Of a stretch of DNA of 64,000 nt, positions 1 to 51,025 are shown one piece after another. Source of the stretch: Pseudo-nitzschia pungens (lineage: Eukaryota > Bacillariophyta > Bacillariophyceae > Bacillariales > Bacillariaceae); contig CM074760.1 of the NCBI GenBank assembly GCA_037355855.1, positions 1,852,501 to 1,916,500 of the forward strand, read 5' to 3'. The number at the start of each line of letters is the position of its first letter. Position 1 is the first letter of the stretch. The translations under genes and the position numbers were made by a program. Below the pieces are notes generated by a model. The model made no database searches. It worked only from the letters and a program-made list of their open reading frames with translations, and was not told the origin of the DNA.

Positions 1-3000
1 TCATCTTGGTCATATTCGGATTCGATGCATTCTGTTTGCCTTCTCTTTCCAATTAGTTTTTCGTCTACTAAATTCGTCAAAGATACATCATCTGATTCGG
101 AACAATCTGATTGCGTTGATTTTTCGGGTGTTTGTATTATCGGGTCATCGATTGAAACATCACCCTTAACTTTGCATGCGTCCGGTTCTACTTCCGGTGT
201 TTGGTTCGATTCTTCCCCGTCATGGACCAACTGGACCGGCTCATTTGATTCTCCTTCAGAGTGACAATCATCCGGTGTTTGATTAGATTCTTCCCCGTCG
301 CATACTGATTGGACCGGTGGATTTGATTCTACTATGGATGAGTCCGCCTTTACTTCCGAACAATCTGATTGCGTTGATTTTTCGGATGTTTGTATTATCG
401 GGTCATCGATTAAAACGTCACCCTTATCTTTGGATGCGTCCGGTTCTACTTCCGGTGTTTGGTTCGATTCTTCCCCGTCGCGGGGTATGGATGAGTCCGC
501 CTTTACTTCCGAACAATCTGATTGCGTTGATTTTTCGGATGTTTGTATTATCGGGTCATCGTCCGGTTCTACTTCCGGTGTTTGGTTCCATTCTTCCCCG
601 TCGCGGACCAACTGGACCGGCTCATTTGATTCTCCTTCAGAGTGACAATCATCCGGTGTTTGGTTCGATTCTTCCCCGTCGCATACCGATTGGACCGGTG
701 GATTTGATTCTACTATGGATGAGTCCGCCTTTACTTCCGAACAATCTGATTGCGTGGATTTTTCGGGTGTTTGTATTATCGGGTCTTCGATTAAAACATC
801 ACCCTTAGCTTTGGATGCGTCCGGTTCTACTTCTGGTGTTTGATTCGATTGGACCGGCGGATTTGATTCTCCTTCAGAGTGACAAGCTTCCGGATTTGTT
901 TCTACTATGGACGAGTCCGCCTTTACTTCCGGTGTTTGATTCCATTCTTCCCCGTCGCATACCGATTGGACCGGTGGATTTAATGCTCCTTCCGGGTGAT
1001 AATTGTTAGCCTTGTTTTTCTTTTTAGCTGTTTTGTGTCCAATGTCATGACAGACCTTGTATTGAAACAATTCACGTTTTAACAGTGTGGCAAATTCCAT
1101 AAAATCGTCACGGAAACTTCTTATTGATTTTTCATCCAAAGTATTCCAAGTATCCTCGCTCCCGAGGATACTAAATGAAATGTCGCGTGCCGTTGTCCGT
1201 TTAGAATCCACTGATGGTTGTCCGTGAAAATCTATCGCCTCTATCAATTCGCTGCAATTATCTACAATAAAGTGGGCGTTGTGGCACAAATATATTCCGC
1301 AGCTGCAACCGTCATGCTGACTGTCCAAACACTCAAATGCCTCTTTTAACGCGGGGTGGATCTTTCGACCTTGATCGTCATCCTCACGGTATTTTATGCC
1401 CGGATAATGTTCGGAGAAATAAGACCGCAACATTTTCAGTTCGTAGTCATTGGGGGTATCATACGTTTCCTTTTGGGAGTCCAGAACTATCAAAGACAGT
1501 GTCTTATCTTTCTCCACGTAAGCTAGGAATAGTCTCCAATGGGAATTGTCGCATTGTGGTATTACAAATATTCGTTTTTTGCTGATGTCTTCGAACGCAA
1601 AATCGATCTTTAGTGCCTTCTTTCCGTCAAAATTTTGTTCATGTTTCATTTTAGAGTGTATTTCCAACTGTGTGAAAAATTGCGGTAAGAATACGTGGAC
1701 TTCTTTCGGCGCCCCAATGGAAATCAGAAGACACCAAAAACCGACCACCACGTCATTCAACCAGTTGTCTCCCTCAAGCGTTTTATAGTCGTCATCGGTG
1801 AATTCAAGTGTTGCCCAGTATCGGTTCTCGTTAAATCTGGTCCGATTATACATAACCGAAAAATCGATCTCTTCCTCTTGGCACCAATCCATCTGTTCCT
1901 CTTGGTACAAGCTTTTGAGAAGATACCATTTCTCCGCAAGGTTTTCTCTAATAAGCTTTTGACAAACAGGTAGTCCCATAATTGATGCAGAGAACAATCG
2001 AGTGCTACTTTCCTTAGCTACCTCAGCCTTTGTTTTGTCATCAATCAATTTACATCTTCCGTGATTCACGCCGAAACATATAGCAGCCTCTTCAGAAATA
2101 GTCAAAGCTTCGACAGATCCAATTTCGAGAAGCGCTTTATTGAAAGCAATTATATCTTCTTTACTTCCTTCAAAGTACAAACGACAAAGAGTTTTGTCTT
2201 CTTGCGAAGTCTGTAAATGCGACGAATCGGAGAAATTACCTGATTCGAACCGATCCATATCGAAAATCAGAGATGTGCGTGTAGGTTCGATCGTAGAATA
2301 CGCAATGAACACTTGTCTGCAACTCGACTTTTGGTTTTTCAGACTGATAGTAATGAAGACTCGGTTGTTGTCTGGATCAACCACTTGTAACTTTGGTAGA
2401 TCGCCGTGACTAACCAAAATCTTGGTTTGATTACCGTAGAAATATCCAGCCGGATTTTCTCTGAGATCGAGATCACAAAAGAAATCGGTATGATTAATTG
2501 TGACTATCGCATTTCCCTCGGGATTTCTTTGTATGATTTTCATCGGTAAAGGTGTTGCATAAAATGAAGGTGTCAGCAACTGAATAACCGGTTTTTGTAT
2601 CAATTCCTGTTTCGTGATCTCTTCTCTAGAACTGTGATCTCCGATTTGTTTAAAGAAATCGTTCGAGGCATCGATATAAGCCTGTTTAAAATTGATATTT
2701 TTAGCCCGTTGTATATATGGCCGTAAATCGATCGGAGTCTTCCCAACATACCCCAACTTTTTCTTCGGCGATTTCCAATCGACACTGCATTCACTCAGAA
2801 AAATTCGTTTTTCTGGGTTTAGCGGGTGAGCAATTTCCACTGTATTTTGATCACAGGGATACAAACGTTCGATAGAGCCATCTCTCTGTATTTGTATAGT
2901 TAGACAACCAGTCACGTTATTTTTGTGTGTTATCTTGGCCTGGACTGGTGTCTCTTGGTCCCCATCCTTATGGTAGTACATGAATCGGTTTGAACTTTTT

Positions 3001-6000
3001 GTAAACACTACAATGTTTGTGTTCGATGATTCTTCTTTGACATTACCCGTTGCCTTTTTCGGGTTGGCGAACAAACTACGCCTAATGGGATTCTTGAAGC
3101 AGGGCTCGCAATAAACCGAGAATCCGTCTCCATCCTTAGAATCGTTTCGAATTGGTAATGGTTCAAACAACACGTTGCAATGTAGGCAATTCCTATTCGG
3201 TGTTTCCCCGACAGTTTCAACACAATATCCACACAATCCACGGTCATTAGAACAAGAAAAATCACCCATTCCCCCGTGATAGAACCGGCGACAAAACTTG
3301 CACTTAGTCTTTGTATCATCAGGCCAAATTGTCATGTTTCCAAAGAAACAGAATGATTTTGCACAACACACTGTACTGTCATCTCCCAGACCACTTCTGT
3401 GGGCTAGGCTGTCCAGGTTGGAAGTCGGACAATTATCAGTCAGGTATACTGATTTACGTTTTAAGCTTGTATCCATAATGCCACTGATGATGTCCTTCAC
3501 AGAAATATTTGTATTGCTTGATACTTTTTTTCTCGCCCGCTGGCTGTGCAAAATCGCTCTAGCTCTGATCAGATGATATTGTGGATGATTTACCAAATTT
3601 CGGGCCATTTCCAGATAACTGCTTTTGGACTGATTGCTTTTGTATCTCAAGTCATGGACAAATAAAACAGCAAGTAGTTCCTTCGTAGTAAATTCAGACA
3701 TCAAACCGGACTGGGACCGTAGTCTGACAAGGAGACTTCTTTCGTCGGTTTTTTTAACCAATTTTTTGTTTTCAGTATCCTTTTTTGTTATTGGTAGTTT
3801 TCTTTTTCGGCGTTGAGCAAGTTTGTTTATAGCCGGATTTTTTCTTTTTAAACTTGAACGTAAAAAATCACCCTGATTTCCCAGTATAGACACTTCCTCG
3901 AAAATATCTGTTTTTAATGTCCATGGGCTGATGTACCTTCGAAGCAGGATCGAAAGAGGGAGACTCATGCAATAAATATTCCGTGATATCTTTGTTTTTC
4001 CCTTGTCTGCGGCTGGAATCGATCTTTCAAAAATTTTGTCCATTACACATATTCCAGAATCGATGTCGTCAAATTTATCTGAAAGTGACAAAATGCCATC
4101 TTCAGATAACTGCCACTCAATTTTATTTTGTTTTTTCTTTAAAAATTTAAGAAGGAAGGAATCGCGGAAATCACTGACTGATTTCTTACAAGAGTCTGGG
4201 CAATTCAAGTGATGGTATGTATGTATAAGCCCGACTCGTGGTAATAATAAGATCACCGACCACCATCTGTGACAATTAGATTCTGGCGATTTACAGAAGA
4301 TTGGGAAGTAAATCTGGTTCGGACAGAATGTTTTACCGTCATGAATGAACGTGTAGGGTATCGAATAATCCACTTGGGGATTATTGCTGTCCGCCGACTG
4401 GTGAACAAAAAACTTGGGTCGGGATTGGTCCTTGGGAAACGCCTGTCGATTGAACAGAACGACAAAAGCGTTCATGAAACAGGGTAGAATTCTACCATTT
4501 TTGCACTCGATTATATCACGAAACCATTCCACTTTGAAATTGAAATCCAACTCGTCACCAACATCCACCCTTTGTAAAAGCTTTTTCTCTAACTCGGATG
4601 ATGTGAACTGTTCTGCACACGATGACAACTTAGATACTACCTCTCGAAGTAATACACTAACATCCATATTTGAAACTCCCGAGAGAAATGTATTCGCGGA
4701 GGATAATCCACCGGTGACATTGGATTCAACCTGCTGGTGAGAATCTTCGTCGTCACCTACCACCATCTTGGCATGTCGTTCTGGGGTAATTTCCCCCTCG
4801 TTTGCAGCTATATTCAGCGCTGTAGTCAAAGCTGGACTACCCTGGATATCAGTTTCGGGGTCCAAAGCCGAAACTTGTGTTAACGGTACGTCGTTTGCCT
4901 GGCTACATTCGGAGTTGGAACTGACACTGTCGTTGTTTCCTGGATCATTCACACACTCCTGATTTGTCTCAGTCTTCGCTAAATATGCCAGCCTTTCACA
5001 GACGCGTTTCTTCCGACCCCTATCGACACTTGGAATTTCACCGAGATAAGAACCCAAGGAGCGTGCCTCGTTAGGTGTGTCCGTCAACGGGCATCCAACC
5101 CCATAATTCTCGCTTGATCTTCCAAGGGTATAGACATAGGACGACAAATCCTGACCGATCAGTTTTTGCGCGAATCGGTCTACTATTTCTCCCAAAGAAA
5201 AAGAGAGGATTTTGTGTTCCTGCAAGTTGAAGTTCCGCCCTTCATCTCCGAAATCAATTGTTCCATTGAGAGTATCAATTTCGTCTTCGTCCAATCCGTG
5301 CCCGAAGAATTTCTTCCGACACGGAGAATATACATTTTTATCATCGCCATCACACAACTCTATCGGTGGCATATCTACGGGAAGGTTTTCTTCGTCTGGG
5401 GTGTACGGTTGCTGCTTCGCCAAATCGCTGATTCGGTAGATGATATAATCGCCGGGCACGATTTCAGATAATGGACAAAAATTCTCCGGTTCTGCACTAT
5501 CATCACGTCCTGATGTGGTTCTCTTTTTACCATCAGTAACGAGGCTCATCTGATCTATTCCTTCCATCCCGAGATCACCATTCTCTTCCCGTTGATACTT
5601 CCTGTGAGTTGTGTCAATTTTTTTTTGCCTGGAAATAGTGAAAGGTTTGTTGATCTTTGCCAGTGGGGACAAAACACCGCCCTCTCTCTTACTAATTCGA
5701 CGGTACCCCGGTCTAAATGGAAAGGCAGTTAATTCTCCGTTCGATGTGATACGCTTGCCCTTGGATTCCTTAGACTTGGAATACCTCGGAGGAGGACTAA
5801 GTTGGAGTGGCGCATGTAAATTCCTTGTGTCAACTGTCGTTGGTTCATATATTTCCAAGCAATTCTTTGCAGAAGAAAAGGGATCACCAAAACAATATTC
5901 GTTGTTTGACCTCCGGATAAGGGTACGCGAGCAAGATGAAAGACTGGAAGAATGATAAACCAGGGACTCGATTATTCCCATTACAGGAATGGTAATAGGA

Positions 6001-8081: not shown

Positions 8082-10478
8082 TACGGAATAAATGTGTTGT
8101 TGGAAAAAAAAATTTTAAGAATAAAAAAGTTTAATTACGGGAAACCATTGAAATGTATAGAAATGCCGACATAAAGGGATAAAAAATACCGACGTAACGG
8201 AAGAAACTAAAAGTTAACGTGTGCAAAAATTTATTATGATTCGGCGATACCTGAAAGTTTTTAGTTAGGAATCACACACGACATGGGTAAATATATGCCC
8301 AACTACCGATGCAAAGTATAACATGAATATAAGAGAACGGTGTTGTCTGATATGAAGTCAAAAGGATCACGGTTGAGACAGAAAAGTGTCGATATGAAGG
8401 AACATAGTATCGTAAAAGTCCGATCGCTAGTTCAATATATTTAACCGTCAAATTTTGTACCGAACTGAAGTAAAATTCAAATCGTAATGTACTATATACT
8501 GTTATAACTCCACCGTAGTACAGCCCACACAATTTCGGGAAAGTATGTCTGATCATGTTAGTCGTACAAGTAGTCCTACCTCACCAACTACCTTGAAGTA
8601 TGACCACGAATTTTCTTTTTGAGACCTACCGTATTCTTAGGAGATGGGTTTTCGTTTGCTCCAATAAAGAAACAGCAAACAATGTGACAATAACCTTACT
8701 GTAGCACTAACAGACTAAAATTGCAAAAGTGTGAAATACGAAATCGCATGGTGAACACCTGCTGTTCAAATTATCAGTAAGAGTACTTTGGGACGCTGCT
8801 AATTTGTAATTAGCGATATTTGCCCGTCGGCAATAGAGAGTACTAAGTGCAAAACAAGAAACAGTGAGTCTACAGTGGGTACGGTTCAAGCGCTATTGTT
8901 GCATACACTCAGATTCTACAAGATACTCCCCTACAAGTACAAAAGGATCAGCCGATATGGATGGCGTAATAAGGTGCTTCATTTTTACTGAACAATAGAA
9001 AGAAGTGCTGGTGGAAGCTGAGCTGAGCACATCTTACCTCTGTATTTGTGATAGCAGCTTGCTGTCTTGTACGGTACCTTATTACAGTAGAGTACAGGAC
9101 TGTAGCGTAATATAGTAGTGTTGCTTGCTTGCTATGCACGATTGCTAAGTGCATGGCTGGGTATCCGGTTCTACCACATACTGTACATACTACTGACCAT
9201 ATCCCACGGTAATAGCATTAGTACTGTAGTGAGTAACCTACTTCATATGTCATCACCGCAACATCCTTCACCATGTAGCAGGACTACTATGCTAGCTACA
9301 GTAGGTATCCTGTAAATCTTACTGGTTCAAATCCTACACAAGGACCAAACATACTAGCTGATAGCCACACCATAACACTCTGTTACACTAGCTTTCTAAG
9401 CCTATTTCTAAGCCTGCTGCTTAGCGCACCACAGCCAAGGATATTGTAACCTGTTACTACTGGGAGCTAAGGTATGTACCTCTGGTACAGATCCCTACAC
9501 ATGGACCCAGCGTCACCATACTTAGCATCATATTAACCATCTTTACAAATTTGCTTTGAGACTGTCAAAGGTGGCATGATGTTATTGAAAACCTTTTTGT
9601 CCTAAATTTGAAATTGATGTACTAGTAGAGATATTCACCTTTGCCATGGTGCTATTGGGTGATGCTCCGGATAGGATAGTGGGTCCCTGCTGAGTAGGGA
9701 TCTGCACCAGAGCTACATGCCCTACTAGTAGCCCTTAGCAATAGGACCATGACAAGACAGGATGCTAGTAGTAGTAGTATGACGCTATGTGAGGTGCTGA
9801 AAAGTTTGCTTGGTCCCGGCGTAGTGATCTGTAACGGAGCTACACGCCCTAGCTAGTACTAACAGCACAGAACACAGCACACAAGCACCGGATTATGAAT
9901 ATTCGATACGAGTAAGGTTACTTCGTACGGTAACCTTAACTTAAAATAATATGACCCCTGCTAGTAGTAGCCTTAAACCTTACTTCGTATTCGATATTCA
10001 ATGTGCATTCCTAATTGAATTCCTCCGTTTCGCTACAAGTTTACTTCGTAATAGTAATTGTAATTTTGTTGTGAAAAAAAAAAAGAATGATCGCCCCCCT
10101 TTTAAGAAACACAGACCAATACCGAACTGAAGTACGGTACGTACAAATTAATGTACCTAATTGGTGCTTATGAGTACGGACAGTACTTGTACATATTCAA
10201 AATTGAAACGTGCTTCGTGATAAAAATTTTAACACTCTTATTGACCATATGATGTTCCTTTTAATGATGTGTCGGTAGTTGGTAACACCTGTGGTTTGTG
10301 GTTTCTGTCTTTATTGAGATTTTTGGGTTCGCATTCCCTAGCAGGATTCAGCATTTCGATTGACCGAAAGCTGTCGCGCGTTCTCGTTCTAAAAAGAATG
10401 AAAAAGAACGGTGCTGAAATTTATCTTCTTTTCGATCTTTACTTATTATTTATTGTTTGTCTCTGATTGCGATTTGCC
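8082..10478. other. Intergenic region; no gene seen
   Basis: AT-rich spacer between the transposase start and the glutaredoxin gene. It holds short TAG/CTA triplet tracts (9720-9790) and paired AAGGTTACTTCGTA-type motifs at 9911-9990. Short open frames here have no recognisable content. If the transposase belongs to a MULE, its right terminal inverted repeat should lie here, but the left end is outside the window so it cannot be identified. Confidence 0.6.
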
Positions 10479-11403
10479 ATGTCAGCACTAAAGCAACATG
10501 TAACCAACCCATTAGGATTTGGAACAGCGATCCCTCCCTGCAACACGTTAGGATACAAGCGACAAGCCGAATCAAACCCAGCTAACAGCGGTTTACTAAA
10601 GAAAATAAAGGCTACGACAATGAGTGCCTCCGCCGAAGAACGCCTTGCAAAAGCGACAGCTTTAGTTGAGAAGGACATTGCCGATAATAAGGTAGGATTC
10701 ATAACGTTGTCGTTGTCTTCAGATTTGAAAACTGAAAATCATCTTCGGGGTGGTCAAAGCATCTCCCTCGTCGCCGCTGCTGCCATTATCACGAACATGA
10801 AAAATCGTTGTGATCTTGGTGTAATTTCTCATCATATTTTTCATTGGTCCTAAACATTCAGGTAGTCGTTTATGCCAAGACGTGGTGAGTACTCGCATTC
10901 TTTTGGCTACCTGAACTAGAATTTTTACCCATTATGGTTGCGGTATGACAACGTTACGTGCCTCATATTTGCTTCTTCTTTCAACAACAATCGAATCCGC
11001 TAAATTATCGTCTGAAATCACAAATACCTGAATTAACTCTGCAGGTGTCCACACTGTGACAAAACAAAGGATACGTTGAAAACCGATGCCTTCAAAGATG
11101 TCCCTGTTTTGATCCGAGATCTTGACGTGATGGATGATCCAACCGGTCCTTGTATGGCCAAGGCTTTGAAAGACAAGACTGGACAAGTAAGAGCTCTATT
11201 TGTTTTTGTTTGGATTTCGGATGTTCTCGCATAGACATTTAATGATGAACTCTTTCAACCCTCTGACAATCCATTCCTGATGTTTTACTTGTTCAACGTT
11301 GACATAGACATCGGTCCCGAACATTTTCATCGCCGGCAAACATTTGGGCGGCAATTCTGATTTTCAGGAAGCTCTAGCGAATGGCACTCTTAGTCTTCAG
11401 TGA
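10479..11403 (+). CDS. Glutaredoxin (dithiol type, CPHC), four exons
   Basis: Exons 10479-10691, 10862-10884, 11045-11186 and 11308-11403 join in frame to 157 aa; all three introns are GT-AG. The fold is a classic dithiol glutaredoxin: VVVYAKTWCPHC with redox cysteines C80 and C83, the TSVPNIFI cis-Pro motif and a GKHLGG glutathione-binding stretch near the C-terminus. It would reduce protein disulfides or glutathionylated proteins using glutathione. The W-C-P-H-C motif is split: exon 2 is only 23 nt, ending TG, and exon 3 supplies the third base of Trp79. The start at 10479 gives a ~47-residue extension before a second ATG at 10620 (MSASAEERL), which starts nearer the domain; the extension could be a targeting peptide or the shorter form could be cytosolic. 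It is convergent with the S9 peptidase downstream. Confidence 0.9.
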
Positions 11404-42137: not shown

Positions 42138-43112
42138 TTAGAGCTTTAACCAAGATGCAATCGCATCAACAACCCCCTCTGCATCATTTGGATCCGAATG
42201 AAAATGATGACTTCCAGGCAACGATCGACAGACTTCGGGTTTCAGCAGAGTTCTCAACCGAGATATGCTCTCCGGAGGAAACGGCATACCATCGATTGCT
42301 GTCAACACGCACGTTGAGGTTTTCTGGTTTACAACATCTTTATACATTTGATCCAACTGATTCACTGACAGGTATAACATACTGGGCCAGTTCAACCGCT
42401 GGTCGTGTCGAAACTGCAGTCGTCCGTCCTCTCTCATAATCGATCCACGTTCGACCAAAGCTTTAGCCGTAGCTTCGCTTATGTATTGTTTTCCGGGAAA
42501 CAATAACCCAGGAGTTTTGCATCGTGTCTCTACAGCTGTTTGGAAATTTGGATAGATCGAACAAGGCATCTTTCCCTGTGCCCGTATTTTTATATTGGAA
42601 CGGAGATTCTTCGAAATGGTCTCCGGAGGTTTGGGCATCGGGCCAAGCGTGTCCAGCATGCAAAGCCTTTGGACAGGGAATGCAGCTGCGTACATCAGTG
42701 ATATCGAGCCACCCATTGAATGTCCAATCAGCGTCAAATCCTCCGGTTTCCATTGCAATTGGCGCACGATCTCGAAGACATAGTAACAGTATTCTGCCTG
42801 TACCGAAGTTGGGCCGTCCAAAGATTTGTGTGACGAATATCCGTGACCGGGTAAGTCAATGGCAACAAAGTCAATGTCGGTAACAGAGTTTCCCGTTGCC
42901 ACTTTGTTCATCAGACCATTTGACAGGGCGTCAAAAGTAGCACAGTTGTCCATCCAACCATGCAGGGCTAAAATTCTGACTTTCTTCCCACGGTCATTCT
43001 TTGTCGTCCACCGTTTTCCCGAGATTTTAATACCATCCGAGCACGTCCATGTGGTTTCGTTTACTACTTCAAGCGAACAAGACATAGTACAACAGTGTGT
43101 CCAATTCAGCAT
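42138..43112 (-). CDS. Alpha/beta-hydrolase (serine hydrolase-like)
   Basis: 324 aa from an ATG at 43112 (a second ATG begins MSCSLEVVNET, nine residues in). Fold landmarks: HGWMDNCATFD oxyanion-hole loop, IDLPGHGYS, nucleophile elbow GHSMGGS and the terminal GSHHFHSDP histidine loop, so the triad looks complete. It resembles SERHL-type hydrolases, whose physiological substrates are poorly known. The GC-rich mobile element begins only 128 bp upstream of this start, in the promoter region. Confidence 0.85.
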   Translation of the reverse strand: MLNWTHCCTMSCSLEVVNETTWTCSDGIKISGKRWTTKNDRGKKVRILALHGWMDNCATFDALSNGLMNKVATGNSVTDIDFVAIDLPGHGYSSHKSLDGPTSVQAEYCYYVFEIVRQLQWKPEDLTLIGHSMGGSISLMYAAAFPVQRLCMLDTLGPMPKPPETISKNLRSNIKIRAQGKMPCSIYPNFQTAVETRCKTPGLLFPGKQYISEATAKALVERGSIMREDGRLQFRHDQRLNWPSMLYLSVNQLDQMYKDVVNQKTSTCVLTAIDGMPFPPESISRLRTLLKPEVCRSLPGSHHFHSDPNDAEGVVDAIASWLKL

Positions 43113-43240: not shown

Positions 43241-43579
43241 CTGTTGGGCAAGACACAGGTCACCGCAACTGCAGGATGCGGGTGGGGACACGCCCGCACC
43301 ACCACGCGCACCACCTGTGAACTTGCCGCGCGCGCCGTGACGAGCACTACGACGTATGTGAGGAAGGTCCCAATGGTAGGTAGGTAAGTGTCACGAGAGG
43401 GCCGACAGCGCGCGTACCGTAGACGGGCACAACGCGGTGCCCGCACAAGGTACGCAGCCGCTACCGGGCACGGAGGTGCGGGACGATGCCTTCCCCATCT
43501 GCTCACCTCATTGTCCCTTGGCCAACACCAAGCCGACGACAATGAGGAGTGCTGTTCCCTGTGGGAGCGGATCAACAAA
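43241..43579 (+). repeat. Split direct repeat A1 (left terminus)
   Basis: 339 bp, identical to 47510-47848. Begins CTGTTGGGCAAGACACAGG and ends GGATCAACAAA. It forms the left end of the element. Confidence 0.97.
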
Positions 43580-43780
43580 CCTATTCCTTTCTCCCCAGCC
43601 ATACACCTCCACACAATACACACCAATACCAACACCACCCACGCCCACACGCTGGCTACCCCAGCACGCTGGCTACCCCAGCCCCCGATCCAGCCGATCA
43701 CGATCCTGCCGATCAACCCCGGACCACACCGTGCCCCCCCGCTGGCTACCCCAGCACACTAACCACCCCAACACCACCCC

Positions 43781-43843
43781 GATCCTGTCGATCACCCCGA
43801 TCCTGTCGATCACGATCCTGTCGATCACGATCCTGTCGATCAC
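43781..43843. repeat. 15-18-bp tandem repeat in element leader
   Basis: Four units of GATCCTGTCGATCAC (one with a CCC insertion) lie between A1 and the recombinase gene. It leaves long frames open but has no clear coding role; it may be part of the 5' leader. Confidence 0.85.
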
Positions 43844-44238
43844 TCCCACCCCGTCGCCAACACCACGCGACTCCCCACTGGTTGGCTACCCCACCCATAC
43901 TCCCGCCACCCGGTCCCGCCGACCACCCGCCCCGGACTACCCGCCCCGCCAACCAAAAAAACGCGGTTTCCCCTATCCCCTACACCGAGATACCCCCGCG
44001 CGCCAGCCCCAAACTTTTGACACCAACCCTGACACCACCCCTCGCCAACCAGAGCGATCGAACCGTTGACACATCCCCTAGCGATCGAACCGTTGACACA
44101 TTCCCTCGCCAGCCCCTCCCTGACACTTACCCTCGCCACTCCACAACTTCCCACCCAACCCCTCCCCTGCGCATCCACTCCCCCACTCCCACAAACCCGA
44201 TCTCATTCAACCACACAAACAAGTCCCAAACATACACC

Positions 44239-45291
44239 ATGCCCCCCATCCCGGAACTCGCCCAGCTCCAGATGCGTTGCCTATCTTCCGGCTTCCTGAA
44301 TTTCTCCGACGCCCCACCGACCAACCGCAACACCACCGACAATACCCGCACCGCTAGCAAATATCTCTTGGCTGCCAGTACCCTTCTAGCCCATTTTGAC
44401 CCCGTCCCTGACCGGGATGCCCGCAAAGAGTCCCCGCTCCGCACCGGCTTGTGCCCGGACATCACCGCTGTCCTCCGCGAGGCCCGCCGTTACGAGTCGG
44501 TCCCCGACCGCAAGGAACCAGTCACCATCGCCATGCAGCAACACCTCCTAACTGCCTCGGCTACCGAGCCCCCCGATTCCCTTCCCGCCACCCTCGCGGA
44601 CTGGCTTACCGTTGGCCTCGCCGCTGGCTTCCGTAAGAGTGAGTGGTGCCAGACTCACAGCCACCGGTGCCTTGGCACGTTTGCCCGCAGCCCTTCGGGC
44701 GACTGTGTCGCCCTCATCCCGGCTGACATCACCCTGTTAGACCGCCATGGGAACCTCCTCCCCCATCCTTCCGGCCTCGCCTCCCCCAGCTCCGTGATGC
44801 GTGTCTGCGTCCGATGGCGATGGCAAAAGAATGGCGAACGGAATGCTGTGAAAGGATTTTCTCGCAACTCAACCGCTTCCCTCAATTTGGTCGCGGCGTG
44901 GTTGCGCATCCTGGCCCGCTATTATCGCCTCTTTCCCGCATGGGCCCCCCATCCCGGCCCTTTGGCGGGCCCCCTCGCAGTCTACAGCCCCTGCCCCAAG
45001 GTGGCCGTTTACGTGGTCGACTCCGACGTCGAAACCACCCTCCGCTCCCTTGCCCGCGACGTCTACGGCGTCACTTCTCCGTCCGCCCTCAAAAAATTTA
45101 CATGTCATTCTATTCGCGTTGGCGCGTGCTGCATTCTCCAGGCCGCCGGCGCGTCTCCCGAATTTATCAAAAAACAGCTCCGGTGGAACAGCGATTCGTG
45201 GCAAATTTACACCCGCGACCTCCACATCCTCTCTCACCAGCATAACGCCATCCTCACGGCTGGCGCCGCCCGGCCCCCCGACCGCTGGTAA
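44239..45291 (+). CDS. Tyrosine recombinase of the mobile element
   Basis: 350 aa from the ATG at 44239 (MPPIPELAQL, preceded by ACACC); the frame is open further upstream but only with GTG and low-complexity sequence. Catalytic pattern: Arg I R132 in GFRKSEW, a probable lysine K197, H290-x-x-R293 in CHSIRVGACC, a Trp (W317 or W321) where many members have His/Trp, and the nucleophile Y324 in QIYTRD. This is the tyrosine recombinase signature; the enzyme would cut and rejoin DNA through a Tyr324 covalent intermediate. The order of helices (~90-130 N-terminal core-binding part) fits DIRS or Crypton recombinases. Strong C-rich codon use sets it apart from host genes. All catalytic residues appear intact, so it may be active. 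Confidence 0.88.
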   Translation: MPPIPELAQLQMRCLSSGFLNFSDAPPTNRNTTDNTRTASKYLLAASTLLAHFDPVPDRDARKESPLRTGLCPDITAVLREARRYESVPDRKEPVTIAMQQHLLTASATEPPDSLPATLADWLTVGLAAGFRKSEWCQTHSHRCLGTFARSPSGDCVALIPADITLLDRHGNLLPHPSGLASPSSVMRVCVRWRWQKNGERNAVKGFSRNSTASLNLVAAWLRILARYYRLFPAWAPHPGPLAGPLAVYSPCPKVAVYVVDSDVETTLRSLARDVYGVTSPSALKKFTCHSIRVGACCILQAAGASPEFIKKQLRWNSDSWQIYTRDLHILSHQHNAILTAGAARPPDRW

Positions 45292-45633
45292 CTTTCACGG
45301 TCTTCTTCCACATCCGTGTCTACTCCCCCCCCCCACGATGCCTAACCCCCCACGATCGCCTCCGTACACATCCCTTACTAAGCGACCAGTTACACCCCGT
45401 TTTATTATTTTACAACCAACACGTTTTATTTTACGATCTATTTTCCGTTTCAGCATGGTTTTCCCACCGTTTCTCCTCCTCCTCTCCCTACCCCTGACCA
45501 TGGCTACACCCGATCCCCTCTTCCCGTGCTTGTCCACGGACTGGGTCCTCTTTGCCCCCCTCCCACTGGTCTTCGCATAATTCCCACTCTGGACTCCTCC
45601 CAAACACCACCTAGCTTTGTTGCCGCCCCCACC

Positions 45634-47040
45634 ATGCTTGCCACCTCGTTCCTCGCGAGGGCCCGACGCCTCCTCGACACCATGAGCCAGGCCATTACCC
45701 TCATCACCAACCCAACCCCCGTCGGCGTCTTCCGTTGTTTCAACCGTCACGGCGACACCCTCGAAGCGGCCGCCCCCACCGCTCCGTTTCGCCCCCCCTT
45801 CACCCTCCCGGTCGACCTCCCACCTTCCTCCCTCCAGGACTTTGAGACTTACGTCGGCCTCTACGTCGATTTCCTTGCCGCTTGCTCCAAAGCCGACTGG
45901 CCCCGAGCTTCCACCCACGCCAAAGACCTCAAGACCCTCCTTCCCTTTCAGGGCATCCCGGAGGACCCTTCCCCGTCCGCCGGCGATTCGCCCACGTCCG
46001 CGTCCGCCCGAACCCATTCCAGAAACTCCTCGCTTTCTATCCGTTCTTCCGATTCCGACTCTCCTCTCCCTTTTGCTCCTCTCGCCCACGGGGCGATGGT
46101 AGTGCCGCCCGCGCCCGCGGGAAATCCTGCTCCTGTCCTCCCAATCCCGGGCCCGCCCGCTCCCCGCGACCCTGCCCAGCCTGAACCTACTGCCATCTCG
46201 TTGACCATCGCCCTCCTTGAGGGCAACCTCAGCAGCCCACCTTCCGACAGAAAGGTCCTGAACGCTCTTCCGCTCACCTCTGCCAATCGAAACCTCACCG
46301 GCTACTCGGACAGCCCGCTCGACACCCCCACCGGTCCCCGCCCGTGGCTCGCCAAGTTGCACACTCTGTACGCCAACCCCGCAGGTGCGGCTGTAGCCTC
46401 TGCCTTGGCAGAATTGGACATGGCCCACCCTTACTGTCCCCATTACCAAACCGCCGTCACCAACTTCCGCCTTGCCTATACCGTCTACCACGGTGTTCAC
46501 TACGCCGAGCCCGTTCCGGCACCCACCACCGCTGCCATCGACCGTCTCCTAGCCCGCGTTACCGCCGCCCGTCCTTCCCTCGACGTCCCGCCTTCGACCA
46601 GCCACGCCCCCAACCAGACCTTGGTCGCTACTCTCAACGCTCTTGGGCTTGAGTACTCCCCCGGCGACGAAGTGGCCACACGTCTGGGCACCGACGCCTG
46701 CCCCTTCCTCCTGTGCCTCCACGTCCCCACCCTCATCGACTACCACGGGCACTACGTCTTCGGTGTCGTCATCCCTAATGGCCGCCTCCTTTTCCCTTGC
46801 TCCACGCGGGGCAAGGTCTTGTGCCAATTCACCGCGGAGACCACCCAAGACCGCTTAATGGCGAATGTTGCCACCGCCTACGGCGCTTCCCGCAGCACGC
46901 TCGCCCCGATCTCAAGCTACGCCTTTGTCTTCCCTCCCGGTCGCGCTTCCACCGCCGCCCTTCCCCCGGCCCCCGCCGTGGGCCCACTTGCTCCAGCCCC
47001 CGTGGGACCACTTGCTCCGGCTCCCGCCAACGCCGCCTAG
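45634..47040 (+). CDS. Second element protein, Pro/Ala-rich, unrecognised (gag-like candidate)
   Basis: 468 aa from the ATG at 45634 in an ACCATGC context; the frame is open to 45526 (ATG MLVHGLG) as well. The middle and end are rich in Pro, Ala and Ser, with a more ordered part (FETYVGLYVDFLAAC) near residues 70-90 and a region with Cys/His pairs (DACPFLLCLHVPTLIDYHGH). No YxDD, RNase H, methyltransferase or zinc-knuckle motif is seen. By position it could be a gag-like or DNA-binding accessory protein; function unknown. Codon use matches the recombinase gene. Confidence 0.7.
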   Translation: MLATSFLARARRLLDTMSQAITLITNPTPVGVFRCFNRHGDTLEAAAPTAPFRPPFTLPVDLPPSSLQDFETYVGLYVDFLAACSKADWPRASTHAKDLKTLLPFQGIPEDPSPSAGDSPTSASARTHSRNSSLSIRSSDSDSPLPFAPLAHGAMVVPPAPAGNPAPVLPIPGPPAPRDPAQPEPTAISLTIALLEGNLSSPPSDRKVLNALPLTSANRNLTGYSDSPLDTPTGPRPWLAKLHTLYANPAGAAVASALAELDMAHPYCPHYQTAVTNFRLAYTVYHGVHYAEPVPAPTTAAIDRLLARVTAARPSLDVPPSTSHAPNQTLVATLNALGLEYSPGDEVATRLGTDACPFLLCLHVPTLIDYHGHYVFGVVIPNGRLLFPCSTRGKVLCQFTAETTQDRLMANVATAYGASRSTLAPISSYAFVFPPGRASTAALPPAPAVGPLAPAPVGPLAPAPANAA

Positions 47041-47098
47041 GTTGCCTAACTGTTCGCGCCCTGCGCTTTAAGCCCCGTTAGACAACCATCCCACCCTA

Positions 47099-47128
47099 TT
47101 TTTTCATTTTTTTTTTTTTTTTTTTTTC
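47099..47128. other. Poly-T tract
   Basis: A near-homopolymeric T run (about 25-29 T) follows the second element gene, on the plus strand, just before the B1 repeat. It could be a slippage-prone tract or mark a transcript 3' end on the minus strand. Confidence 0.7.
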
Positions 47129-47231
47129 CCGGCTGTACTCGTCAACTTCGAGAGTGGCGGTGGCTCGACTTTCCATTCGCGCTTCACCCCCTCTTCGAGC
47201 GGGTTCACGAACTCTCCTCTCCACCCGTTGT

Positions 47232-47510
47232 GGCAAGGACTCTCTGTGCACTGTACTAACCCTACATACCCCTACTACATAGGGGTCCCACCCCGATTAG
47301 GGTTCGGGTTAGTGACTAGATAGCTACCGCGCACACTGCGCGCGCACGCTATACCACACATTCGCCTAAAGCTTCGTCAATCCGCCATCACTACAGAATA
47401 GACATAGTGTATACCGCGTATGACCTAGTATAGACAAATGTGAGCACAGAGTACGTGCACTCCGAAGTTGACGTACACCCGAGACGGCGCCGGGGTATCC
47501 CATAGGATAC
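47232..47510 (+). repeat. Split direct repeat B1 (internal)
   Basis: 279 bp, from GGCAAGGACTCTCTG to CATAGGATAC. Differs from B2 only in the GCGC tract (one base longer here). It contains an inverted pair of telomere-like heptamers, CTAACCC (47256) and GGGTTAG (47306). Confidence 0.95.
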
Positions 47511-47848
47511 TGTTGGGCAAGACACAGGTCACCGCAACTGCAGGATGCGGGTGGGGACACGCCCGCACCACCACGCGCACCACCTGTGAACTTGCCGCGC
47601 GCGCCGTGACGAGCACTACGACGTATGTGAGGAAGGTCCCAATGGTAGGTAGGTAAGTGTCACGAGAGGGCCGACAGCGCGCGTACCGTAGACGGGCACA
47701 ACGCGGTGCCCGCACAAGGTACGCAGCCGCTACCGGGCACGGAGGTGCGGGACGATGCCTTCCCCATCTGCTCACCTCATTGTCCCTTGGCCAACACCAA
47801 GCCGACGACAATGAGGAGTGCTGTTCCCTGTGGGAGCGGATCAACAAA
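47510..47848 (+). repeat. Split direct repeat A2 (internal)
   Basis: 339 bp, identical to A1. It directly follows B1 with the junction GGATAC|TGTTGGG, sharing the single C at 47510. Confidence 0.97.
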
Positions 47849-47866
47849 ACTCCCGCCCGCCCACCC

Positions 47867-48144
47867 GGCAAGGACTCTCTGTGCACTGTACTAACCCTAC
47901 ATACCCCTACTACATAGGGGTCCCACCCCGATTAGGGTTCGGGTTAGTGACTAGATAGCTACCGCGCACACGCGCGCGCACGCTATACCACACATTCGCC
48001 TAAAGCTTCGTCAATCCGCCATCACTACAGAATAGACATAGTGTATACCGCGTATGACCTAGTATAGACAAATGTGAGCACAGAGTACGTGCACTCCGAA
48101 GTTGACGTACACCCGAGACGGCGCCGGGGTATCCCATAGGATAC
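47867..48144 (+). repeat. Split direct repeat B2 (right terminus)
   Basis: 278 bp; ends CATAGGATAC at 48144, where host minisatellite resumes (CCCACTATCTG). Contains the same telomere-like inverted pair as B1 (47891 and 47940). Confidence 0.95.
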
Positions 48145-48430
48145 CCCACTATCTGTCTGTCTCCCCTCCGGTCTGCTTCCCCACTGTCTGTCTGTCCCCC
48201 CTCCAGTCCGCTTCCCCACTGTCTGTCTGTCCCCCCTCCAGTCTGCTTCCCCACTATCTGTCTGTCCCCCTCCAGTCCGCTTCCCCACTGTCGAATTGGT
48301 TCCCCTTCCGGTCGGCTTCCCCACTGTCTGTCTGTCCCCCTCTGGTCCCCTTCCCAAATGTCTGTCTGTCCCTCCTCCAGTCACCTCCCCACTGTCTATC
48401 TGTCTCCCCACTGCTCCGGTCTGCCTCCCA
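48145..48430. repeat. Minisatellite, ~8 units of 34-38 bp; target of the element
   Basis: Units of the form GTCCGCTTCCCCACTGTCTGTCTGTCCCCC repeat about eight times with variation. The bases left of the element (GTCCGCTT, 43233-43240) complete the first unit when joined to CCCACTATCTG here, so the element sits inside this array. Confidence 0.93.
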
Positions 48431-49734: not shown

Positions 49735-49993
49735 TATTTCGGAACAGACACAGAAACAGTGATCGCTCGAGGAAAGCACACAAAACAGTCACCGCTCCAG
49801 GGAGTATCTCCGTTTCTTTGTATTATTACAGCCACATTGGAAGCCTTCTTCCATATCGTCCTTAGGCCACGCAGCTCCTTCTGCGTGGCATTCGTAACAG
49901 GGATTCGAAACAGTCCCTGTTATATACCACGTATACTGTCTGTTGTCTGATGTTGATCTTCAACCTCAACACCGATTGCGTTTCCTTTTCACG

Positions 49994-51025
49994 ATGAAGA
50001 AGAGAAAAAAATCTAGCAAGAAGAGTGAACCCATCGGGACTGGGCAGTTGAATGCTCGAGTACTCATGGTGCTGATTGCTTTTTCCATTGTTGCTTTGTT
50101 TCGCTACCAAACGTTCTTCAGTGACCTAACGAAATCATTTTCCGAGACATACACGTGTGGAGCACAACTCGCCGTAAATCTGAATACCAACGAAGAAGCG
50201 GAAGAAATCCGGCTCGGTGATGGTTGCTACAACGTATTTTTGGACGTCGGTGCCAATCGGGGTGTTCACGGGCGCTTCCTGCTGGAACCCAAAAAATATA
50301 ATCAATCCAGGCGTGCGGTTCCACTGTTTGACTACCAGTTCGGAAAGAACCGCCATAACGAAGATTTTTGTGTTTTTGAGTTCGAGGCAAATTCAAAGCA
50401 TTGGCCGCGGCTACAGGAAATATCTTCAGCATACGCCAAAATGGGATGGAGGTACCACGTGGTCGAAGCAGCTGTTGGTGACAGGAATGGGACAGCAACC
50501 TTTTTCCACCAGGGAACCCAAGATAATAAGTTCGAAGAATGGGGTTTTTCTGGTGCCAAGAATTTAGGCGAAAGTGGGGGATATGAGGAGCAGGTGCCTA
50601 CAATTCACCTGAGCAAGTGGATCCAATACCACATCCACGAACGGAAAGTACCGGAGGTACCCCCCAGCATCAGCGCCAAAAAGAGTACCGATGATATTAC
50701 CAATACAAAACCACCAATGCTCGCAATGAAAATGGATATCGAAGGCTATGAATATGTCGTATTGCCCGATTTGATTCATTCAAATGTCTTATGTCACTTT
50801 GACTTCGCTTTCGGTGAATTTCATTCAAAGTTCTTTCCCATAGAGCAGTTCAATACCGATAGCAGCAATCCCCATCGGGTAAGTCTGCGAACAAAAAGAG
50901 AAATCGATGACTTTAACCGCGCTCTGGTTAAAGTAATGCATTCTTCCCGAAATTGTGGTGTGAAGTGGCAATCGATCGATGATGAATCCTATTTGCATGA
51001 CGACATGCCTTTGCCTTCTCCATAG
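49994..51025 (+). CDS. FkbM-like methyltransferase, type II membrane
   Basis: 343 aa from the ATG MKKRKKSSKK at 49994; the frame is open further upstream but begins with TTG. A basic tail precedes one transmembrane segment (residues ~23-38, VLMVLIAFSIVALF). The lumenal domain has FkbM/Methyltransf_21 features: VFLDVGANRGVHG (SAM-binding loop), CVFEFEAN, VVEAAVGDRNGTATFF and MKMDIEGYEYVVLPDL. FkbM proteins O-methylate sugars and polyketides in bacteria; eukaryotic relatives are often Golgi-like and of unknown substrate. The signal anchor suggests a Golgi or ER lumen enzyme, possibly methylating glycans. Confidence 0.82.
   Translation: MKKRKKSSKKSEPIGTGQLNARVLMVLIAFSIVALFRYQTFFSDLTKSFSETYTCGAQLAVNLNTNEEAEEIRLGDGCYNVFLDVGANRGVHGRFLLEPKKYNQSRRAVPLFDYQFGKNRHNEDFCVFEFEANSKHWPRLQEISSAYAKMGWRYHVVEAAVGDRNGTATFFHQGTQDNKFEEWGFSGAKNLGESGGYEEQVPTIHLSKWIQYHIHERKVPEVPPSISAKKSTDDITNTKPPMLAMKMDIEGYEYVVLPDLIHSNVLCHFDFAFGEFHSKFFPIEQFNTDSSNPHRVSLRTKREIDDFNRALVKVMHSSRNCGVKWQSIDDESYLHDDMPLPSP

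What the first reader, a model, noticed from the sequence alone, without database searches (positions are those of the whole stretch)
43241..48144. Tyrosine-recombinase element with split direct repeats but no visible reverse transcriptase
Seen: A1-genes-B1-A2-B2 topology, 100% identical 339-bp A copies, an intact tyrosine recombinase (R132, K197, H290-x-x-R293, Y324) and a second unrecognised protein. Known: split direct repeats of this order occur in PAT/Ngaro elements of the DIRS order, which also encode RT and RNase H; Cryptons have a recombinase without RT but no such repeats. Inferred: this is either an RT-less DIRS derivative moved in trans or an undescribed recombinase-only lineage that replicates or moves through a circle.
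Basis: partly seen in the sequence, partly recalled or inferred. Interest (0 to 1): 0.88.

Follow-up and report, generated by a model that had tools for sequence, protein, structure and literature searches.

The report
Broken copy of a diatom retrotransposon
The element is a shortened copy of a larger jumping gene that the same genome, very probably a diatom's, carries in longer copies whose likely reverse-transcriptase gene is still there; it belongs to a known kind of mobile element, and the missing enzyme is explained by an internal deletion.

Summary
The repeats are real: A1 and A2 are identical, B1 and B2 differ by one base, in the order A1-genes-B1-A2-B2. It is not an RT-less lineage. 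In the same genome 11 longer copies carry an open 963-codon pol frame. The window copy lacks about 5.3 kb: most of ORF1, all of pol and the start of the recombinase gene. The joint at 44349-44350 occurs once in the genome. The recombinase is therefore not intact: catalytic residues remain, but 131 N-terminal codons of its 444-codon open frame are replaced by 37 ORF1 codons. Other copies carry other deletions, and solo A-B copies occur. Insertions have fixed ends, no target duplication and a GATAC-like target matching the element's end GGATAC, as expected when a recombinase joins a circle to a chromosome. Best filing: a new family of DIRS-order (Ngaro/PAT-type) elements, very probably in a diatom, seen here as a non-autonomous deletion copy. 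RNase H has moderate profile support; RT rests on motifs. DIRS elements were already listed for one diatom (PMC5859163). Interest is modest.

The parts
43242..43579 (+). A1 repeat, left end of the element (TGTTGGG...); base 43241 is a C that the flank and the end of B share
   Evidence: identical to A2; the same start was found in 19 of the 20 left-end stretches and in the 18 stretches L053-L070 (two of these with one base changed)
43580..44238 (+). C-rich 5' region before ORF1, with short internal repeats
44239..44349 (+). first 37 codons of ORF1 (gag-like by position), the rest deleted
   Evidence: the same start opens ORF1 frames of longer copies, 812 to 1007 codons in most
44349..44350 (+). 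deletion joint with 2-nt microhomology (CA); about 5.3 kb (rest of ORF1, pol, start of TR) missing
   Evidence: two longer copies mapped on both sides, a third on the left side only; joint occurs once in the genome
44350..45291 (+). C-terminal 313 codons plus stop of the tyrosine recombinase (TR), catalytic R-K-HxxR-Y retained, N-terminal part missing
   Evidence: (Phage_integrase E 0.0014, 18.8 bits, below Pfam's cut-off of 27.1)
45634..47040 (+). ORF4, 468-aa protein of unknown function
   Evidence: no homologue; dN/dS 0.54-0.75; 24% identity, E 2e-7 with part of a Pseudo-nitzschia gene model
47232..47510 (+). B1 repeat
47511..47848 (+). A2 repeat
47849..47866 (+). 18-nt linker between A2 and B2
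47867..48144 (+). B2 repeat, right end of the element (...GGATAC)
48145..48430 (+). target: a 34-35 bp minisatellite; the element lies inside its first unit
   Evidence: flanks joined without the element match neighbouring units at up to 27 of 29 positions

Best explanation
The window holds a young, non-autonomous internal-deletion copy of a 10.2-kb tyrosine-recombinase retrotransposon of the DIRS order (Ngaro/PAT-type repeats), in what is very probably a diatom genome. Shown: the full copies have the order A1 - ORF1 (gag-like, weak CCCH zinc finger) - pol - TR - ORF4 - B1-A2-B2, and this copy lost ORF1 (but for 37 codons), pol and the N-terminal part of TR. Inferred from the pattern of insertions and from published models of the order: the RNA is copied to DNA, the split repeats allow a circle with a GGATAC/TGTTGGG joint, and TR supplied by full copies recombines that joint with a GATAC-like chromosomal site, leaving no target duplication. 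The window copy keeps A1 and B1-A2-B2, the sequences that such a cycle would need, but makes no RT and probably no working TR; it would depend on full copies if it moves at all.
For: Longer copies: one search shows the two halves of the window element about 5.3 kb apart in several copies; one search shows the missing stretch with a 960-codon pol frame and a 762-codon ORF1 frame; one search shows 11 of 49 rows with an open 963-codon pol frame without stops. Clean 2-nt joint, unique. RNase H: hhalign of the pol family against frames of the same genome that match Pfam RVT_1, E 5e-4 (probability 31%), aligning TDAS..GIGAV and PGSDNALADAVSR; the second motif alone (E 0.0027). RT-type motifs in order, read by eye in the six proteins: D(N/D)D..NA(F/Y)R, TG(Q/N)(S/T)F, and VDD in five of six (P0002 has IDN). 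Purifying selection: pol dN/dS 0.11-0.13, TR 0.12-0.17. The lost TR N-part is conserved in family 2 (E 7e-29) and Nitzschia (E 1e-18), so its loss matters. Ends TGTTGGG and GGATAC fixed; 37 left flanks favour GATAC at -5..-1 (single-position p down to 3e-9); no target duplication, 0 of 20 copies share 4 bases. A second family (43% pol identity) shows the A1..B1-A2-B2 plan in one of the two copies fetched.
Against: RT itself is not recognised by Pfam, NCBIfam, PADLOC or PDB sequence searches, and hhalign aligns the RNase H part but not the RT part with significance. The one AlphaFold model of a relative's pol was poor (mean pLDDT 38.7), so RT rests on motifs, position and architecture. The TR N-part gave no match to one degraded Pseudo-nitzschia model (P0007). 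No phylogeny against reference Ngaro, PAT or VIPER was possible. No evidence of transcripts, circles or movement.
Confidence: 0.92

Rival explanations
1. An independent recombinase-only lineage with split direct repeats that moves or replicates through a circle without reverse transcription.
For: The window copy has only TR and ORF4 between the repeats, and other copies without a usable pol exist (C4:5274009, C2:1179203, C5:1935790, C4:4932843).
Against: The deletion joints differ from copy to copy, the window joint is unique, the TR is N-terminally truncated, and what is left is the two ends of the pol-carrying copies at about 99% identity.
Confidence: 0.03
2. A Crypton (DNA transposon with a tyrosine recombinase and no RT).
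For: Cryptons are reported from the diatom Phaeodactylum (PMC3212892, passages read; PMC5859163, table passage read).
Against: Cryptons have no long direct repeats (PMC3212892); here long split repeats are present, and the parent copies encode pol.
Confidence: 0.01
3. An assembly artefact: a full 10.2-kb element collapsed at this locus.
For: The repeats are long, near-identical and present many times, and the joint is seen in one assembly only.
Against: The joint lies in internal sequence with 2-nt microhomology and not inside the A or B repeats; over 3796 bp the copy differs from the two nearest copies by 11 and 13 substitutions plus 3 gap openings each.
Confidence: 0.04

Closest known systems
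Ngaro elements, for example those of Cafeteria burkhardae (PMC8547959, passages read)
   Same: A1-[ORFs]-B1-A2-B2 split direct repeats, gag-like ORF1, RT/RNase H then YR, scattered solo A-B repeats already described there
   Different: About 10.2 kb against about 6 kb; there RT was found with Pfam PF00078, here it was not; an extra ORF4 here; phylogenetic position not tested
PAT-like elements (PMC4157794, PMC6681497, passages read; reported with Ngaro in the brown alga Ectocarpus, PMC12477816, passages read)
   Same: Split direct repeats; zinc finger in gag of Pat1 (here only a weak CCCH match)
   Different: PAT elements belong to the group with a methyltransferase domain; none was detected here, though the same search also missed RT
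DIRS of the diatom Phaeodactylum tricornutum (PMC5859163, table passage read: 14 copies, 18 kb)
   Same: Same order of elements in a diatom
   Different: The passage gives no structure or sequence, so kinship could not be tested
VIPER and its short form SIRE (PMC6681497, passages read)
   Same: Split direct repeats A1..B1-A2-B2; SIRE corresponds to A2-B2, like the solo copies here
   Different: In VIPER the YR lies before RT/RH (recalled); here pol precedes TR
Crypton (PMC3212892, passages read)
   Same: Tyrosine recombinase, no RT in this copy
   Different: No long direct repeats in Cryptons; here the parent copies encode pol

Membership tests
DIRS order, split-repeat group (Ngaro/PAT/VIPER type) | A1-[ORFs]-B1-A2-B2 split direct repeats | tested here: met
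   in family 2 shown in one of two copies fetched
DIRS order, split-repeat group (Ngaro/PAT/VIPER type) | tyrosine recombinase with R..K..HxxR..Y | tested here: met
   Pfam Phage_integrase E 0.0014 (18.8 bits, cut-off 27.1), residues aligned with the Nitzschia relative; the window copy is truncated
DIRS order, split-repeat group (Ngaro/PAT/VIPER type) | RNase H in the parent family | tested here: met
   moderate support only: hhalign E 5e-4, probability 31%, one motif, E 0.0027; Pfam gave none
DIRS order, split-repeat group (Ngaro/PAT/VIPER type) | reverse transcriptase in the parent family | tested here: inconclusive
   motifs in order (by eye); no profile hit; poor model
DIRS order, split-repeat group (Ngaro/PAT/VIPER type) | RT/RNase H in the window copy itself | tested here: not met
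   deleted
Ngaro | no methyltransferase domain | tested here: inconclusive
   no Pfam match in pol, ORF1, TR or ORF4, but the same search misses RT
Ngaro | RT or YR clusters with Ngaro references in a tree | not tested
   no reference sequences at hand
PAT-like | methyltransferase domain | tested here: inconclusive
   none detected
Crypton | recombinase without RT and without long direct repeats | tested here: not met
   long repeats present; pol in parent copies

The most novel reading that the evidence does not exclude
The diatom elements form a separate deep branch of tyrosine-recombinase retrotransposons. Their RT is too divergent for present profiles, the recombinase has no start codon of its own and lies in the -1 frame over the end of pol, and a fourth protein is conserved at least as far as Pseudo-nitzschia. 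Full-length circles could be resolved by TR at the B1-A2 joint into two smaller circles, A-ORFs-B and A-B, each of which can integrate, which would explain the three integrated forms seen here without homologous recombination.
Probability: 0.15. Interest if true: 0.55.

Novelty: new member of a known kind. Interest (0 to 1): 0.3.

Why it matters
It turns an apparent new class of mobile element into a documented new family of a rare one. It adds two tyrosine-recombinase families in one genome, very probably a diatom's; the first has fixed ends, a readable target signature (GATAC, equal to the element's own end) and a series of full, deleted, single-repeat and solo copies. That series makes the circle-integration model directly testable if the host can be cultured. 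It also warns that Pfam RT profiles can miss whole families, so 'no RT by profile search' does not show a recombinase-only element.

Tried and rejected
Pfam, NCBIfam and PADLOC for RT, RNase H and methyltransferase: no usable match (weak matches such as PANTS-like, AgrD and DUF6933 ignored). PDB by sequence: nothing relevant. AlphaFold of the relative P0001 with 7 sequences: mean pLDDT 38.7, so no fold search was made. Structure of the window TR: never accepted, the machine was busy. hhalign: an RT set that included L087 gave only a short DAS match, a second set one RNase H motif, a third the longer RNase H match; several option settings were tried, and no E-value is corrected for that. A first script that picked RT frames had the wrong orientation for nine loci and was redone. 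Search for a slippery heptamer in the pol-TR overlap: none in the pol frame in either family. ORF4: no homologue in the large protein search, no similarity to the ORF in the same place in family 2 (best E 1.3), but similarity to a Pseudo-nitzschia gene model; dN/dS 0.54-0.75 in its frame against 0.87-1.12 in the other two, with 31 indels in the oldest copy, so selection on it is weak. A first dN/dS run for TR used a wrong frame and was redone. I considered that the in-frame ORF1-TR joint reflects splicing before reverse transcription: the possible joint positions do not give GT..AG (read), so I dropped it. L043 held no A end because I fetched the wrong place; one search found 259 bp of A nearer to pol in that copy. 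L043 and L066 (flanks equal to L065) were left out of the flank statistics.

Paper searches: listings only, cut at 20 of 107, 20 of 54 and 15 of 16 in three of them, apart from the passages cited. One diatom paper lists DIRS elements (PMC5859163). PMC2806351 (two passages) used DIRS sequences as probes and in a tree; PMC3155517 (one passage) names DIRS-1 of Dictyostelium only. Split-repeat elements in a diatom were not seen in these listings or passages; subscription papers are mostly not in the library.
Full report
What is there. A1 and A2 are identical over 339 bp and do not extend further. B1 and B2 differ by one inserted base in B1; the other 39 rows span 276-277 bases where B1 spans 278. 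Between A2 and B2 lies an 18-nt linker. Between A1 and B1 are a C-rich leader, a frame with the recombinase (ATG at 44239, stop at 45291) and a second frame, ORF4 (ATG at 45634, stop at 47040).

The rest of the genome settles the question. The window lies in a 66.9-Mb assembly of 28 contigs. Searching it with the element returned 48 matches from 40 scored of 156 candidates, so counts are lower bounds. Several copies match in two blocks, query 2-1110 and 1109-4904, about 5.3 kb apart, for example C6:1249978-1260158. The missing stretch holds a 762-codon frame that continues ORF1 and a 960-codon pol frame. A protein search with pol returned 49 rows: 11 cover at least residues 2-960 in an open 963-codon frame without stops, and 7 are near-full-length rows of a second family at 43% identity.

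The deletion. Of three longer copies mapped, all three place the left breakpoint at 44350 and two place the right one at 44349; in the third the right side could not be placed. CA is shared by both sides. The joint occurs once in the genome. The window copy differs from its two nearest relatives by 11 and 13 substitutions and 3 gap openings each over 3796 bp, so it is young but not a direct duplicate of either. Whether the deletion arose before, during or after insertion is unknown.

The recombinase is not intact. In full copies TR lies in a 444-codon open frame that overlaps the end of pol by about 95 codons in the -1 frame and has no methionine before codon 193. The window protein starts with 37 codons of ORF1 and joins TR at codon 132. 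The lost part is conserved: 41% identity to family 2 (E 7e-29) and 35% to a Nitzschia protein (E 1e-18), though a degraded Pseudo-nitzschia model gave no match. By analogy with other tyrosine recombinases (recalled) this would be the core-binding part, so activity is doubtful although R132, K197, H290, R293 and Y324 remain.

What pol is. RT-type motifs stand in the expected order in the six aligned proteins (motif names recalled); the VDD motif is in five of six. Profile comparison with frames of the same genome that match Pfam RVT_1 gives a match for the RNase H part at E 5e-4 (hhalign probability 31%), including TDAS..GIGAV and PGSDNALADAVSR. No library search recognised RT, and the only structure model was poor. 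RNase H is therefore moderately supported; RT is likely but not proven here. Between copies, dN/dS is 0.11-0.13 for pol and 0.23-0.26 for ORF1, and 0.12-0.17 for TR in its frame against 1.27-2.86 in the other two; ORF4 is at 0.54-0.75 against 0.87-1.12.

Forms of the element. Ten copies (F1-F10) have A1 at the left and a terminal B at the right over 10-16 kb, and in all ten one search aligns through B1-A2-B2. Four besides the window are internal deletions that keep A1 (one of them 328 of 339 bp) and B1-A2-B2, about 6.4, 4.3, 3.7 and 2.0 kb long; none has more than a 34-residue pol match. The 4.3-kb one also holds about 1 kb that matches no other locus over 2 kb held here. One more (C7:3792133) keeps 259 bp of A near pol, apparently a 5' deletion. 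Six end after B1, with no A or B in the 0.9-1.0 kb beyond (left ends). Eight are solo A-linker-B, two of which share flanks and so are one event duplicated. Ten more begin with A and run into the leader; five of these (L055, L061, L064, L069, L070) are seen to jump to the B end, the others were not followed. L071 is an older, rearranged copy. Solo A-B copies are already in print for Cafeteria (PMC8547959) and, as SIRE, for VIPER (PMC6681497). Copies lacking A2-B2 could come from recombination between B1 and B2, and solos from recombination between A1 and A2, by TR or by ordinary homologous recombination; nothing here separates these.

Integration. All 22 right ends of long copies examined (21 fetched plus the window) end in GGATAC; of 14 shorter copies looked at, 10 end so exactly, 2 with one base changed upstream of the end, and 2 were cut before the end. 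The left ends found start with TGTTGGG or, in L065 and L066, TGTTGAG. In 37 left flanks the five bases before the element favour GATAC: 19 G at -5, 21 A at -4, 28 T at -3, 18 A at -2, 21 C and no G at -1. Mean match to GATAC is 2.25-3.20 per class against 1.28 in background sequence (the consensus was chosen from the same flanks, so this is descriptive). No target duplication: 0 of 20 copies share 4 bases at the two flanks, and 1 of 20 shares 3 (0.74 expected). At the window locus the joined flanks rebuild a minisatellite unit, 27 of 29 positions at best, so the insertion is clean. This fits a recombinase joining a circle to a short matching site, as published for DIRS1-like elements with a 3-bp joint (PMC3266345, passages read).

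Relatives. The pol search scored 8000 candidates and returned 10 proteins: six gene models labelled Psemu1 (Pseudo-nitzschia multiseries, label read from memory), one Nitzschia inconspicua protein that holds pol and TR in one model after a Cys-rich stretch like that of ORF1 (by eye), and three unnamed ENA proteins. The host is therefore very probably a diatom; this is inferred. In family 2 the copy read from L078 and L079 has A1 1149-1403, B1 9958-10209, A2 10209-10463 and B2 10484-10736; the other copy fetched (L076, L077) has B1-A2-B2 but no A1 in the 14 kb held, and its 5' part differs. The repeats of the two families are mostly unlike (one 16-nt match near the B end, E 0.004), though both elements begin with a stretch containing GGGCAAG. 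ORF4 resembles the end of a Pseudo-nitzschia model (24%, E 2e-7).

Filing. By repeats and gene order it works like a Ngaro or PAT element. The parent family meets the repeat and recombinase tests and, with moderate support, the RNase H test; RT is inconclusive, absence of methyltransferase is inconclusive, and the tree was not made. The window copy is a non-autonomous derivative and not a new class. DIRS elements have been listed for Phaeodactylum (PMC5859163), so the order is not new to diatoms.

Noticed in passing
window 47099-47127: A T-rich run (6 T, CA, then 21 T) lies between ORF4 and B1 on the + strand.
   Followed up: no
window 43626-43856 and 44053-44106: The leader before ORF1 carries short repeats spaced 17, 15 and 27 bp.
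   Followed up: no
L003 (reverse strand) 1109-1395; L078+L079 7224-7527: In both families the TR frame overlaps the end of pol in the -1 frame and has no early ATG; no slippery heptamer in the pol frame was found.
   Followed up: partly
G000:C7:3948735-3955830 (L082): A copy without A2-B2 in which 5' ORF1 sequence is fused in frame to pol (1183-codon open frame), a second in-frame joint close to the ORF1 start.
   Followed up: partly
G000:C9:2035222-2051105 and C6:3165578-3181534: Two copies about 5.7 kb longer than the rest; the first has an RVT_1-bearing frame inside (C9:2043408), so it is probably interrupted by another retroelement; the second was not examined.
   Followed up: no
   Followed up: partly
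window 42138-43112 (-) and 49943-51025 (+): Neighbouring host genes: an alpha/beta hydrolase (Abhydrolase_1, E 9e-12) and an FkbM-type methyltransferase (E 2e-8).
   Followed up: yes
whole genome G000: All 150 scored places, of 1225 candidates, match RVT_1 above its cut-off, so other RT elements are abundant while the pol of this family is not recognised by Pfam.
   Followed up: no
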